Origin: Brachyspira hyodysenteriae ATCC 27164
GTDB lineage: Bacteria; Spirochaetota; Brachyspiria; Brachyspirales; Brachyspiraceae
Direction: 5' to 3'
Length of the DNA stretch: 64,000 bases
NCBI RefSeq assembly: GCF_001676785.2
Contig: NZ_CP015910.2
Location: forward strand, 496,001 to 560,000
Both the position numbers and the translations under genes were made by a program. Below, in pieces: positions 5,556 through 10,958 of the stretch (within the stretch, counting starts at the first letter, position 1; every line of letters starts with the position of its first letter). The notes under the pieces were generated by a model. It was not told the origin of the DNA. It made no database searches and saw only the letters and a program-made list of their open reading frames with translations.

Positions 5556-5641
5556 TTTTGACATTAAAAATATGTAAACTAAATTTTAATATTTTAATAA
5601 AAATTAATAGTATCTATCAAACAAACTACGGAGTGTTAATC

Positions 5642-8203
5642 ATGGAATATAATTTTACTACCATTGAAAAGAAATGGCAGAAATTCTGGAAAGATAATCA
5701 GTCTTTCAAAACAGTATCTAAACCTACAGACAAAAAATACTATGTACTAGAAATGTTTCCATACCCATCTGGAAAAATGCATATGGGGCACGTTTCTAAT
5801 TATACTATAGCTGACTCTATAGCTAGATACTATAAACTGTTAGGATATGATATTTTACACCCAATGGGTTGGGACGCTTTTGGTATGCCTGCAGAAAATG
5901 CTGCTATAGAACATAAAACTCACCCTGCTGAATGGACTTTAAAAAATATTGCTAATATGAAAGATCAGTTAAACTTACTTGGATATTCTTATGATTGGGA
6001 TAGAGAAGTTACTACTTGTTTGCCTGATTATTATAAATGGGGACAATGGTTCATATTAAAAATGTATGAGAAAGGTCTTTTATATAGAAAAGGTGGAGAT
6101 GTTAACTGGTGCGATCATTGTAATACAGTACTTGCAAATGAACAGGTTACTCCTGAAGGTACTTGCTGGAGATGCGACGGAGAAGTTACTAAAAAGAAAC
6201 TTGAACAATGGTATATAAAAGTTACTGATTATGCAGAACAATTAGATGCAGATTTGAAATTATTAGAAGGTTATTGGCCTGATAATGTTATAGCTATGCA
6301 GAAAAACTGGATAGGAAGAAGTGTAGGTGCTTATATCAATTTCAATTTAGATGACGGTAAAGCTTTCCCTATATTTACAACTCGTCCAGACACTATTTAT
6401 GGTGTTACTTATATGGCTATAGCTTGGAACTATGATGGACTTTTAGATATGTGTACCACTGAACAGAAGAGTGCTGTAGAGGAGTTCATTAAAAAGTCTG
6501 CTAAAATAGACCAAAAAACAGATTATGAGAAAGAAGGTGTATTCACTGGAAGATATGTAGTTAATCCATTTAATGGCGAGAAAGCTCCTTTATATGCTGC
6601 TAATTTCGTTTTAGCTGAGTATGGTAGCGGTGCTGTAATGGCTGTTCCTGCTCATGACCAAAGGGACTTTGAATTTGCTAAAAAATACAATATTCCTGTA
6701 AAAGTTGTTATACAAAATGCTGATAATTCTTTAAAAGCTGAAAACATGACAGAGGCTTATACTGAAGACGGTACAGTTGTTAATTCAGATATTTTAAATG
6801 GACTTTCTTCAAGAGATGCTATAAAAAGAGCAATAGAGTATGCTACAGAAAAAGGCTTTGGAAAAGAGAAAGTTCAGTATAAACTTAGAGACTGGCTTAT
6901 ATCAAGACAAAGATATTGGGGCAATCCTTTACCATTTGTACATTGTGAGAAATGCGGTGTTGTTCCTGTACCTGAAAGCGAACTTCCTATAACACTTCCT
7001 ATGGATATAGAGTTTACAGTTGGTGATAACCCTCTTAAAAAATCAGAATCATTCGTTAATACGACTTGTCCTAAATGCGGCGGCAAGGCTAGAAGAGAAA
7101 CTGATACTATGGATACATTCACATGCAGTTCCTGGTATTATGCTAGATATACAGATGCTCATAACAATCAGATGCCTTTCGATCCTTCAGCTGCAAATGC
7201 TTGGCTTGGAGTTGATCAGTATATAGGCGGTATTGAACATGCTTGTATGCATCTTTTATATTCAAGATTCTGGTACAAGTTTATGAGAGATATAGGACTC
7301 GTTAAAGGTGATGAGCCTTTCAATAGACTTCTTACTCAAGGTATGGTTTTAGCAAATAGCTATGAATCAAGAGAGTTAAAGAAATTCTATACTCAGGAAC
7401 AAATGAACAATAAAGAGTATGAGAAAGATGGAATTAAAAAAGAAGACATTATAGTAAAAATGGAAAAGATGTCTAAATCAAAAGCTAATGGTATTGATCC
7501 TGCTGAGATTATAGAACTTTTTGGTGCTGATGCTGTTAGAATATTCGTTATGTTTGTTGCTCCTCCTGAAAAAGATAAAGAATGGTCTGATGAAGGTGTT
7601 AAAGGTTCTTCAAGATTCTTAAATAGAATTTGGAACTTATTCCTTAAATACAAAGATGAAGAAGCATTCAAAAACGGCAAATCATTTGATTATAATAACC
7701 TTTCAAAAGAAGGACAAAAATTATTCAGAAAATACAATAAAACTATTAAGAAAGTTACAATAGATATTAAAGACAGATTCCATTTCAATACTGCAATTGC
7801 TGCTTTGATGGAGCTTTTGAATGATATGTCTGTAATAAAATTAGCTAATAATGATGATTATGCTATGTTTAAAGAAGTTATAAGAGGATATTTAATACTT
7901 CTTAATCCTATAGCTCCTCATATGACAGAAGAACTTTATCAGATATTAAACTTCGGAAAAATGATACTCGAAGAAAGATGGGTTGAACATGATGAACAGT
8001 ATTGCAAAGATGATACATTCGAGTTAGTATTCCAAGTTAATGGTAAGATAAGAGACAGAATAGAAGCTGATGTTAATATAAGCGAAGATGATGCAAAAGC
8101 TCAGGCATTAGCAAGCGAAAAAGTTAAAGCATTCACAGACGGTAAAAACATTGTTAAAGTTGTTTATGTTAAAGGAAAACTTGTAAATATAGTTGTAAAA
8201 TAA
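5642..8203 (+). CDS. leuS: Leucyl-tRNA synthetase
   Basis: Charges tRNA-Leu with leucine; cytoplasmic class Ia synthetase of 853 residues, normal bacterial length. PYPSGKMHMGHVSN contains the HIGH-type signature and MEKMSKSKANGIDP the KMSKS loop. The editing domain holds FTTRPDTIYGVTY. Zinc-type Cys pairs are visible (CDHC/CWRC and CEKC/CPKC), and the C-terminus ends in the usual small domain. The frame extends to a TTG at 5558, but that TTG lies in the transcription-start region; ACGGAG at 5628-5633 and the family-typical MEYNFTTIEKKWQKFW support ATG 5642. It has its own promoter and terminator and is flanked by inverted copies (C and D) of the palindromic element. Confidence 0.98.
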   Translation: MEYNFTTIEKKWQKFWKDNQSFKTVSKPTDKKYYVLEMFPYPSGKMHMGHVSNYTIADSIARYYKLLGYDILHPMGWDAFGMPAENAAIEHKTHPAEWTLKNIANMKDQLNLLGYSYDWDREVTTCLPDYYKWGQWFILKMYEKGLLYRKGGDVNWCDHCNTVLANEQVTPEGTCWRCDGEVTKKKLEQWYIKVTDYAEQLDADLKLLEGYWPDNVIAMQKNWIGRSVGAYINFNLDDGKAFPIFTTRPDTIYGVTYMAIAWNYDGLLDMCTTEQKSAVEEFIKKSAKIDQKTDYEKEGVFTGRYVVNPFNGEKAPLYAANFVLAEYGSGAVMAVPAHDQRDFEFAKKYNIPVKVVIQNADNSLKAENMTEAYTEDGTVVNSDILNGLSSRDAIKRAIEYATEKGFGKEKVQYKLRDWLISRQRYWGNPLPFVHCEKCGVVPVPESELPITLPMDIEFTVGDNPLKKSESFVNTTCPKCGGKARRETDTMDTFTCSSWYYARYTDAHNNQMPFDPSAANAWLGVDQYIGGIEHACMHLLYSRFWYKFMRDIGLVKGDEPFNRLLTQGMVLANSYESRELKKFYTQEQMNNKEYEKDGIKKEDIIVKMEKMSKSKANGIDPAEIIELFGADAVRIFVMFVAPPEKDKEWSDEGVKGSSRFLNRIWNLFLKYKDEEAFKNGKSFDYNNLSKEGQKLFRKYNKTIKKVTIDIKDRFHFNTAIAALMELLNDMSVIKLANNDDYAMFKEVIRGYLILLNPIAPHMTEELYQILNFGKMILEERWVEHDEQYCKDDTFELVFQVNGKIRDRIEADVNISEDDAKAQALASEKVKAFTDGKNIVKVVYVKGKLVNIVVK

Positions 8204-8231
8204 AACATTATTACTTAAAAAATAAAAAGAT

Positions 8232-8269
8232 TAAAGAGTATGGATTAAAAAAGTCCGTACTCTTTTTTA
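8232..8269 (+). terminator. leuS terminator
   Basis: AAAGAGTA...GGA pairs with TCC...TACTCTTT and is followed by a run of T. It begins about 30 bases after the leuS stop. Confidence 0.85.
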
Positions 8270-8276
8270 TTTTAAT

Positions 8277-8484
8277 TACATACCCCGCCCTTTATTTTTT
8301 ATTGTTTAATTTAGGATTTTAATTTTTATTATCTTTATAGCTTTATCATAAATTATAGACCCCACCCAAGTTTTTATTAGATTTAGAATGCATTCAACGC
8401 ACGGTGAACTAAATTTTTGTGTATAATGAAATTGAATTGATAATTAAGTTTATATTTTTATCTAAATTCTGCGTGCGGTAAGTT
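8277..8484 (-). repeat. Truncated copy D of palindromic element, inverted relative to C
   Basis: Contains CATACCCCGCCC (8281), ACCCCACCCAAG (8359), GAATGCATTCAACGCACGG (8386) and ATTCTGCGTGCGG (8466). These are four of the six boxes at normal spacing, read as the reverse complement of copy C. The last two boxes are missing, and the element stops just before the 3' end of the broken DUF3226 gene (stop codon 8501-8503). Confidence 0.8.
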
Positions 8485-8500
8485 GATGAAAATATAAGAA

Positions 8501-9082
8501 TTAATTTCCATTAACAAAATGTTTATCAAAAAAAATTTTCAATGGTATTAAATAATCACTATCTATATTCCAAATTTCATTATTGGTATAATCTCTTTTA
8601 TCTTCCTTAATTTCTTTTTTATTATCTACTTTTATAGATTCTAAATATGCATATACTTTTGATTTATTTACTGGAATATTTGTGTCATTTAATGCTTCTA
8701 TACATTTTGTATAATTATCAAAACAATTCATTATTTCTTTTCTTACAGCAATATTAATTAGTATGTTTTCTAAATTACCATTATCTTTATTATTTGGAAA
8801 TAAAAATATATCTTCATCATGTAAATTATAATTTGTTAAATTGTTTTTTATATTATCAATAGAATTTTGTATATCGTTATCAGCATCAAATATTACAATT
8901 AATTTATGATTATCATCAATATATTTTTTTATATGAATTATTTTCTTTTCATTAAAACTGTTACCATTATTTATTTCTATCTTAATATTTTAATTAAAAT
9001 TATTATAATTATGTTTTATATAATCTTCTAAAAATTTTTTATCAGCTTTACCTTTAACTAATATTAAATATTTTTGATTCAT
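8501..9082 (-). pseudogene. DUF3226 (TOPRIM-like) protein, interrupted by one stop codon
   Basis: Reading from the ATG at 9082 gives 193 codons with a single in-frame TAA at codon 31 (8992-8990); all other codons remain open, so this is a nonsense mutation or a base-call error and not a frameshift. Before the stop, YLILVKGKADKKFLEDY corresponds to the family's VEGxxDxxF start, with the usual catalytic Glu replaced by Lys. After it, LIVIFDADND is the TOPRIM-type DxD motif, and FLFPNNKDNGNLENIL matches the PxN...GxLE segment of DUF3226. Only two bases separate it from the ATPase stop, so the pair was co-expressed. Possibly an inactivated nuclease partner; no internal start would restore the domain. 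Confidence 0.75.
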
Positions 9083-9084
9083 AA

Positions 9085-10122
9085 TTAGTACCTTATATCA
9101 GAATCATTTTCGAGTAATTCTTTAATGTTATCCATATCATAATTATATGATTGAAATCCTTCATTTTCTGTATTGACTATATTGATAACATTTACAGTAT
9201 CTTTTATATCATTAAACTCATCATTAACTATTTCAGATAAAAATTTTAATACTTCATAGCTATGAGTTGTGAAGAACATTTGAATGTCATTATTTTTACT
9301 TAGATTTAATATGCTTCTTAATAAATGTTTAATAGTTTTATGATGAAGCCCATTTTCTATTTCATCAACTAAAATAGTATTATATTTATTTGTTATTATA
9401 GGTAATATAATAGATAAATATTTTTTTAATCCATCACCCATTAAATTTAATAATACTAATTCATTTATACCATCAATATTTATATATATATCATTTTTTA
9501 GCATACTAATTGCTTTTATATCTTTATTGAAAAATGAAATCATTTTTAGTAATTCTTCTTCATTTTTATTTTTTAATATTTCTACTAAATAATTACTTAA
9601 TGAATGATATTCTACTGTATTAGGTATATAAGCTTCTCTTTTACTATCTATATTTTCAGATTTTCTGCTCATCATAAATATAGTATTATTAATATTAGGT
9701 ATGGTTATTTTTTTTTCTTCTATGGTATTAGTATCTTCATTAGAAATAATCATATTGTAATTTAACTCAATATTATCATCATTAATCATTTTTTCATCTT
9801 TAAATATTGGGCTTATATTTATATTATAGCTTATATTATTATCTTCATTGTAATTCAAATTTATATTGTTATTATAGTCAAAATTATGAAATAGGGTTCT
9901 TATTTCTGCTTTATTTTCTGTGAATCTGTTTATAGCTTTTATATTTTCAATTATCTTAATACGAGATTCTGATAAAATAAGCATTAAAGCTTCAAGTACG
10001 CTTGTTTTTCCGCAGTTATTTTTGCCAACTAGAAAATTTATTTTTTTTATATTATCTATCTTTAATTTATCAAAGCCTCTGAAATTTTCTATATATAAGT
10101 TTTTAATCATAATAAAATCCAT
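9085..10122 (-). CDS. AAA ATPase of the OLD/AAA_15-21 type
   Basis: ABC/SMC-like ATPase of 345 residues, the kind found in overcoming-lysogenization-defect and other phage-defence pairs. IKNLYIENFRGF is the typical N-terminal strand, GKNNCGKTS (residues 33-41) is Walker A, and TILVDEIENGLHH is Walker B with the following D-loop His. FFTTHSYEVL is the switch histidine region. The insertion between them is Asn/Ile-rich. A second Met at 10110 fits the family start better, but no clear ribosome site decides between them. It lies upstream of, and nearly touches, the broken DUF3226 gene. The ATPase itself looks intact. Confidence 0.85.
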   Translation of the reverse strand: MDFIMIKNLYIENFRGFDKLKIDNIKKINFLVGKNNCGKTSVLEALMLILSESRIKIIENIKAINRFTENKAEIRTLFHNFDYNNNINLNYNEDNNISYNINISPIFKDEKMINDDNIELNYNMIISNEDTNTIEEKKITIPNINNTIFMMSRKSENIDSKREAYIPNTVEYHSLSNYLVEILKNKNEEELLKMISFFNKDIKAISMLKNDIYINIDGINELVLLNLMGDGLKKYLSIILPIITNKYNTILVDEIENGLHHKTIKHLLRSILNLSKNNDIQMFFTTHSYEVLKFLSEIVNDEFNDIKDTVNVINIVNTENEGFQSYNYDMDNIKELLENDSDIRY

Positions 10123-10185
10123 TGAATTTAAATTAATCTGAAATTAAATATCGGAGTTTTAGAAAAAAAATAGAGTTTATTAATT

Positions 10186-10213
10186 TTTACATTTATAAAT
10201 TATATGCTATAAT
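10186..10213 (+). promoter_or_regulatory. hisA promoter
   Basis: TTTACA (10186-10191), 16-base spacer, TATAAT (10208-10213), about 28 bases upstream of the hisA start. Confidence 0.6.
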
Positions 10214-10241
10214 AAATAATAATATTTTGAGGGGATTGAAG

Positions 10242-10958
10242 ATGTATATACTGCCTGCAATAGATTTAAAAAACGGAGAAGTTGTACGACTTGTAGAAGG
10301 TAATTATGATAATAAAACAACTTATTTTAATGATCCTTTAGAAGTTTTGGATTTCTTTATTGAAAGCGGAAGCAGTTATTTGCATGTAGTTGATTTGGAT
10401 GGTGCAAGCGACGGAGAAACTATTAATTTTAAAACTATAGAAAAAGTAATAAAGAAATGCGATTTATTTGTAGAAGTGGGCGGCGGTATAAGAAATGAAG
10501 ACACTATAAAAAAGTATTTGGATATAGGTGTAAAAAGAACAATATTAGGAACTGCTGCTGTTGAAAATATTGATTTTACTAATGATATGATTAATAAATA
10601 TAAAGAGCATATAGCAGTATCTATAGATTCAAGAGATAGAATGATAGCAGTTAAAGGCTGGAAAGAAATTAATAAACAAGATTCTGTAGAGTTTTGTATG
10701 AAATTAGATAGTATGGGGATAGATACTATTATATATACAGATATTTCAAAGGATGGTAAACTTTCCGGTACTAATTTAGATATTTATAAAGAGTTAAGAG
10801 AAAAAATTTCATGCAATATTATAGCTTCAGGCGGTGTAACTTTTGAAGATGAAATTATAAAATTGAGAGATATGAAAATTAATGGTGCTATAGTTGGAAA
10901 AGCTATATATGAAGGTAAAATAGATTTAAAAAAGATAATAGAAATAGCAAAGCAGTAA
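10242..10958 (+). CDS. hisA: Phosphoribosylformimino-AICAR ribotide isomerase
   Basis: Fourth step of histidine biosynthesis: isomerises ProFAR to PRFAR on a TIM barrel. MYILPAIDLKNGEVVRLVEG carries the catalytic Asp of strand 1, EVGGGIRNEDTI the first phosphate-binding loop, and YTDISKDGKLSGTN the second catalytic Asp (TDI..DG). IIASGGV is the last phosphate loop. The 238 residues match the family. GAGGGG at about 10230 supports the ATG at 10242 over an upstream TTG at 10227. No other his gene lies nearby, so it is detached from a his operon here. Confidence 0.95.
   Translation: MYILPAIDLKNGEVVRLVEGNYDNKTTYFNDPLEVLDFFIESGSSYLHVVDLDGASDGETINFKTIEKVIKKCDLFVEVGGGIRNEDTIKKYLDIGVKRTILGTAAVENIDFTNDMINKYKEHIAVSIDSRDRMIAVKGWKEINKQDSVEFCMKLDSMGIDTIIYTDISKDGKLSGTNLDIYKELREKISCNIIASGGVTFEDEIIKLRDMKINGAIVGKAIYEGKIDLKKIIEIAKQ

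What the first reader, a model, noticed from the sequence alone, without database searches (positions are those of the whole stretch)
8501..10122. AAA ATPase plus broken DUF3226 TOPRIM-like partner: a decayed defence pair
The two genes are two bases apart, the layout of ATPase/TOPRIM defence pairs such as PARIS (AriA/AriB), but with a DUF3226 rather than a DUF4435 partner. The partner has a single TAA at codon 31 while the remaining ~160 codons stay open; its catalytic Glu position (VEG) also reads VKG. The recent, single lesion suggests loss under cost, phase variation or readthrough. The ATPase remains intact.
Basis: partly seen in the sequence, partly recalled or inferred. Interest (0 to 1): 0.6.

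Follow-up and report, generated by a model that had tools for sequence, protein, structure and literature searches.

The report
Decayed AbiL phage-defence gene pair
A two-gene anti-phage system of the known AbiL kind has lost its nuclease gene in this Brachyspira genome while its ATPase gene stays intact, and in related species the same ATPase has lived on alone under selection, which hints at a second use for half of a defence system.

Summary
An intact ATPase gene (9085-10110, minus) is followed two bases later by a DUF3226 gene (8501-9082, minus) with TAA at codon 31. Its Toprim motif reads VKG where intact relatives read VEG.

The pair is AbiL-like, not PARIS: PADLOC AbiLi E=3e-110, AbiLii E=1e-33, no AriB match. 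An intact orthologue folds as a Toprim nuclease (nearest solved: PH0156, OLD C-termini). All 61 DUF3226 relatives found in other genomes lie directly behind an AbiLi gene.

Intact copies occupy the same hisA-leuS site in two sister genomes, so both lesions are derived. Readthrough or phase variation is unlikely: the lesion is a substitution, and a read-through product would still lack the catalytic glutamate.

These orphans form one clade. All keep Walker A; eight lost both the Walker B Glu and H-loop His, a ninth the His. The seven complete double mutants evolve under strong purifying selection (pairwise dN/dS 0.07-0.21). The window may show an early step of that route (effector lost, ATPase kept); this is inference. 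The window itself is an ordinary decayed AbiL locus.

The parts
9085..10110 (-). AbiLi: ABC/SMC-type AAA ATPase, intact, 341 aa (an upstream in-frame ATG at 10122 gives 345 aa)
   Evidence: PADLOC AbiLi PDLC02336 E=2.6e-110; PF13304 E=6.9e-21; all invariant residues of paired AbiLi kept
10003..10026 (-). Walker A (GKNNCGKT, residues 29-36)
   Evidence: alignments
9349..9375 (-). Walker B and following residues (ILVDEIENG, residues 246-254), with catalytic Glu250
   Evidence: invariant in paired AbiLi
9262..9264 (-). H-loop His283
   Evidence: invariant in paired AbiLi
9088..9111 (-). C-terminal tail ENDSDIRY (residues 334-341) with invariant Arg340; lost in effector-less AbiLi
8501..9082 (-). 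AbiLii pseudogene: DUF3226 Toprim nuclease frame, 193 codons plus final stop, interrupted
   Evidence: PF11536 E=5e-14, PADLOC AbiLii PDLC02338 E=1e-33
8990..8992 (-). in-frame TAA, codon 31 of AbiLii
   Evidence: sense codon in the three orthologues G018, G021, G009
9053..9055 (-). codon 10: Lys in place of the catalytic Toprim Glu (VEG reads VKG)
8879..8887 (-). second Toprim motif D-A-D (Asp66, Asp68), kept

Best explanation
The locus is an AbiL-type two-gene defence operon inserted between leuS and hisA of a Brachyspira chromosome, inactivated in its effector. In intact relatives AbiLi (ABC/SMC-like ATPase) most likely senses infection and holds AbiLii in check, and AbiLii (Toprim nuclease) on release cuts nucleic acid and stops the cell; this mechanism is inferred by analogy with PARIS and other ATPase/Toprim systems and was not tested. 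Here AbiLii cannot be made: its frame stops at codon 31, and the catalytic Glu is also replaced. No other DUF3226 gene exists in this genome, so the system cannot fire. AbiLi is still complete and shows no sign of decay. Effector loss at this site happened at least three separate times (stop here; a 2-base deletion in G009; complete loss in the ancestor of the orphan clade). In the orphan clade AbiLi was retained and its ATP-binding residues kept while hydrolysis residues changed.
For: Family: PADLOC AbiLi 2.6e-110 and AbiLii 1.1e-33, Pfam DUF3226. Fold: pLDDT 91 model of an intact orthologue matches PH0156 (Z 11.8), OLD C-termini (Z 9.4), RNase M5 Toprim (Z 8.2) and PARIS AriB (Z 7.0); AbiLi matches GajA, PtuA, Rad50 and SMC heads. 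Obligate pairing: 61 of 61 relatives have AbiLi directly upstream. Defence neighbourhood: 10 of 94 neighbouring ORFs scanned are C5 DNA methylases. Intact orthologues at the same site in G018 and G021. Derived lesions. No second DUF3226 or close AbiLi in the genome. AbiLii G000-G018 dN/dS 0.24, so the gene was constrained until recently. Orphans: one clade 99/98, no AbiLii remnant and no conserved small downstream ORF, dN/dS 0.07-0.21 among the seven complete double mutants with neutral expectation rejected at p<1e-6 in the five pairs tested. Literature: AbiLii of Fusobacterium nucleatum is toxic in E. coli (PMC3985639).
Against: No experiment on any Brachyspira AbiL. Raw reads and further strains of the same species were not available, so the lesions rest on one assembly. 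In PMC3985639 AbiLi did not neutralise AbiLii of F. nucleatum, which does not support a simple toxin-antitoxin scheme. The literature links AbiLii to the RloB family (PMC10440598); the lactococcal prototype itself was not available for direct comparison.
Confidence: 0.85

Rival explanations
1. AbiLi has a role of its own, independent of AbiLii, and is kept in this strain for that reason; the window is an intermediate on the way to the orphan allele of its relatives.
For: Ten effector-less AbiLi at the same site in one clade; Walker A kept in all; low dN/dS; no DUF3226 anywhere in G007, G022, G025, each at least 99% complete. GajA is a precedent for an ATPase domain that binds but no longer hydrolyses ATP (PMC12796447).
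Against: The lesion in the window is recent, so an intact ATPase is expected without any selection. The window's AbiLi belongs to the paired clade and has not begun the orphan changes. The function of orphans is unknown.
Confidence: 0.35
2. AbiLii was lost because it is costly or toxic (selection for inactivation, for instance autoimmunity or prophage conflict).
For: Of the 44 positions that are invariant in the intact Brachyspira AbiLii, only the catalytic Glu is changed here, in addition to the stop. In the window-like Brachyspira clade 6 of 9 pairs are broken against at most 3 of 52 elsewhere (counts). F. nucleatum AbiLii is toxic in E. coli (PMC3985639).
Against: One hit at one residue is weak statistics. 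Broken copies include ATPase-first breaks (G006 second locus), which a toxic effector would not favour. Several lesions are one-base homopolymer indels that may be sequencing errors.
Confidence: 0.3
3. Sequencing or assembly error.
For: Reads not available.
Against: Two separate substitutions, neither of the homopolymer type; complete two-contig assembly.
Confidence: 0.07
4. Phase variation, readthrough or recoding gives a working AbiLii.
For: Slippage-type one-A indels do occur in other Brachyspira AbiL copies.
Against: This lesion is a substitution, not a repeat-length change; TAA is followed by A, a context in which efficient readthrough is not expected; the product would still lack the catalytic Glu.
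Confidence: 0.03

Closest known systems
AbiL (AbiLi/AbiLii), abortive infection system first described in Lactococcus lactis
   Same: Two adjacent genes, ATPase then Toprim-type partner; best PADLOC match for both proteins.
   Different: Effector broken here. Partner is of Pfam DUF3226, while the literature relates AbiLii to RloB (PMC10440598). Only the PADLOC model, not the lactococcal protein, was compared.
PARIS (AriA/AriB)
   Same: Separate ATPase and Toprim nuclease genes; AriB is among the fold matches (Z 7.0).
   Different: AriA models score far lower (6e-24 against 3e-110) and no AriB model matches the partner.
ATPase plus DUF3226 pair on ColRNAI plasmids of Klebsiella (NZ_CP024435, WP_012579087/WP_012579086)
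   Same: Same two-gene layout and families (AbiLi PDLC02336 E=2e-58; PF11536 E=7e-27).
   Different: Intact, on a 4.2 kb plasmid, about 33% identical in the C-terminal part of the ATPase; its DUF3226 matches PADLOC's candidate PDC-M38B rather than AbiLii.
OLD/GajA family
   Same: ABC-type ATPase joined functionally to a Toprim nuclease; the closest solved folds besides PH0156.
   Different: OLD and GajA carry both domains in one chain.

Membership tests
AbiL | AbiLi-type ATPase gene | tested here: met
   PDLC02336 E=2.6e-110 over the full model
AbiL | AbiLii-type partner directly downstream | tested here: met
   PDLC02338 E=1.1e-33, two bases downstream, but only when the stop is read as X
AbiL | open, catalytically complete effector | tested here: not met
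   TAA at codon 31 and E10K; so a decayed member, not a working one
AbiL | direct sequence relation to the lactococcal prototype | not tested
   no lactococcal AbiL among the plasmid hits at E<=1e-5
AbiL | abortive infection phenotype | not testable with these tools
   -
PARIS | AriA better than other ATPase models | tested here: not met
   AriA 6.4e-24 against AbiLi 2.6e-110
PARIS | AriB (DUF4435-type) partner | tested here: not met
   partner is PF11536; no AriB model at E<=1
Toprim nucleases | Toprim fold with Glu and DxD motif | tested here: met
   met in intact orthologues; Glu lost in the window

The most novel reading that the evidence does not exclude
In Brachyspira, the sensor ATPase of an AbiL defence pair has been freed from its effector and kept as a stand-alone ATP-binding protein that probably no longer hydrolyses ATP; the window shows a separate, early case of effector loss with the ATPase retained.
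Probability: 0.4. Interest if true: 0.62.

Novelty: new member of a known kind. Interest (0 to 1): 0.4.

Why it matters
Defence systems are usually treated as all-or-nothing modules. Here one chromosomal site shows intact pairs, pairs with a broken effector, and a lineage where the ATPase is conserved without the effector and without its hydrolysis residues. That gives a natural series for asking what the ATPase does alone, whether effector loss is selected, and whether the conserved C-terminal tail of AbiLi belongs to effector control. It also warns annotators: PADLOC-type calls would list AbiL in genomes where it cannot fire.

Tried and rejected
PARIS membership: rejected by the profile scores. 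Hidden partner of the orphan ATPases: tblastn of AbiLii at E<=10 and inspection of short ORFs downstream found none. Second DUF3226 in the window's genome: none. RNA family in 8200-10300: none. Promoter scan: fewer sites than in shuffles, uninformative. Lactococcal AbiL in the plasmid collection: not found. Phage-borne copies: none covering the query in annotated phages, two related copies in IMG/VR contigs, not followed. Papers on DUF3226: none held; papers on Brachyspira with abortive infection: five held, none on AbiL by title or abstract. A dedicated branch test of dN/dS was not possible; pairwise Nei-Gojobori values were used, and these saturate for the distant pairs.

Full report
What is there. 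On the minus strand, between leuS (5558-8203, plus) and hisA (10242-10958, plus), lie two genes two bases apart: an ATPase (9085-10110) and a DUF3226 gene (8501-9082). The second has TAA at codon 31 and then 162 open codons to its natural stop. With X at the stop the frame matches PF11536 from residue 5 to 189, so the interruption lies inside one gene. Residue 10, Glu of the Toprim VEG motif in all intact copies, is Lys.

What family. PADLOC assigns the ATPase to AbiLi at E=2.6e-110 and the partner to AbiLii at 1.1e-33; AriA models come at 6e-24 and no AriB model matches. In a scan of 84,980 species genomes 61 loci encode a relative of the partner, and an AbiLi homologue lies directly upstream in all 61, mostly in Bacteroidales, also Campylobacterota, Rickettsiales and others. 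One of the two peptide patterns used for that scan contains VEG, so the wider conservation of this Glu is biased; the Brachyspira set was found by profile and is not. Klebsiella ColRNAI plasmids carry the same kind of pair (families). Ten of 94 neighbouring ORFs scanned are C5 DNA methylases, which fits defence surroundings; no control set was scanned.

Structure. The AlphaFold model of the intact G018 orthologue (pLDDT 91) matches PH0156 (Z 11.8), the C-terminal Toprim of OLD proteins (Z 9.4), small Toprim proteins (9.2), RNase M5 (8.2) and PARIS AriB (7.0). Invariant residues across 41 relatives include E10, D66 and D68. The AbiLi model (pLDDT 88) matches GajA, PtuA, retron ATPases, Rad50 and SMC heads. 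Across 36 paired AbiLi the invariant residues are those of Walker A and Walker B, the H-loop His283 and, unexpectedly, Arg340 in the C-terminal tail; the tail motif END-x-(E/D)-(I/L)-R is recognisable in nearly all pairs listed.

Derived and recent. G018 and G021 carry intact pairs at the same hisA-leuS site. At codons 10 and 31 G018, G021 and G009 have Glu and sense codons, so both lesions arose on the window's lineage. AbiLii dN/dS between the window and G018 is 0.24, and E10 is the only residue changed among the positions invariant in the intact Brachyspira set. Decay is thus young. AbiLi of the window is complete at every invariant position, with dN/dS 0.15 to G009 and 0.21 to G018.

Not unique. 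In Brachyspira the window-like AbiL clade has 6 of 9 pairs broken in one or both genes: G000 and G009 at the hisA site, and the second-locus copies of G004, G006, G008 and G024, against at most 3 of 52 in other genera (Fisher p=1e-4; sequences are related, so the p value is only indicative). G009 has a 2-base deletion. Several of the other lesions are one-A changes in A7/A8 tracts: both AbiLi copies of G008 at the same tract, AbiLi of the G006 second locus, AbiLii of the G004 second locus. These may be slippage or sequencing error. The window's stop is a substitution and is not of that type.

Orphan ATPases. Searching for AbiLi and hisA in 26 Brachyspira genomes showed ten with AbiLi at the hisA site and no AbiLii (G004, G005, G006, G007, G008, G014, G022, G023, G024, G025). 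No remnant of AbiLii is detectable downstream and no short ORF is conserved there. G007, G022 and G025 have no DUF3226 gene at all. The orphans form one clade (99/98) whose relatives and outgroups are all paired, so partner loss is derived and probably happened once; the gene tree disagrees with the hisA tree (G014; G007 against G009), which suggests that paired and orphan alleles have been exchanged at this site. All complete orphans keep Walker A, the two signature glycines and Walker B Asp; Arg340 is gone in all of them; His283 is gone in all but G014; Glu250 is changed to Asp in the G004-G006 and G022-G025 group (G008, whose N-terminal frame is broken, shows the same changes). Among the seven complete double mutants pairwise dN/dS is 0.07-0.21; in five pairs tested the share of nonsynonymous changes is far below the neutral expectation (p<1e-6). 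hisA in the same species pairs gives 0.01-0.07, so the orphans are constrained, though less than a housekeeping enzyme. The reading is that an ATP-binding protein, probably without hydrolysis, has been kept without the effector. What it does is unknown.

Mechanism. For the intact system the likeliest scheme is the one shown for PARIS: an ATPase assembly holds a Toprim nuclease and frees it on a phage signal (PMC11455837). For AbiL itself the support is limited: F. nucleatum AbiLii is toxic in E. coli, AbiLi did not neutralise it (PMC3985639). In the window the scheme ends at the ATPase: there is no working effector and no substitute in the genome. Shown here: gene content, lesions, orthology, pairing, constraint. 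Inferred: sensing, restraint, nuclease action, abortive infection.

Verdict. The wider pattern of a retained effector-less AbiLi is the part worth pursuing.

Noticed in passing
window 8285-8420: Member of a dispersed repeat of about 130 bases, at least 50 copies in this chromosome at 70-80% identity; related sequence follows AbiL in other Brachyspira and could have helped deletions.
   Followed up: partly
L010 / L165 (G021) AbiLi residues 41-160: The central part of AbiLi is only 37% identical to the window while both ends are 89-100% identical: looks like a swap of a central, possibly sensing, region.
   Followed up: partly
L156 and L022 (G008), L027 (G006), L024 (G004): One-base indels in A7/A8 tracts break AbiL genes; the intact window AbiLi carries the same A8 tract at 10041-10048. 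Slippage or sequencing error cannot be told apart.
   Followed up: partly
window 8501-8992 against PADLOC PDLC02338: PADLOC's AbiLii model (125 positions) lacks the first Toprim motif and scores the fragment after this stop higher than intact orthologues; perhaps it was built from a truncated relative.
   Followed up: no
L079:179-4852: In a Flavobacteriaceae genome AbiLi is the C-terminal part of a 1,558-residue frame whose N-terminal part has weak helicase/AAA matches, followed by DUF3226.
   Followed up: no
L163 (G009), L158 (G015): leuS lies in the opposite orientation next to the AbiL site compared with other species: an inversion breakpoint at this locus.
   Followed up: no
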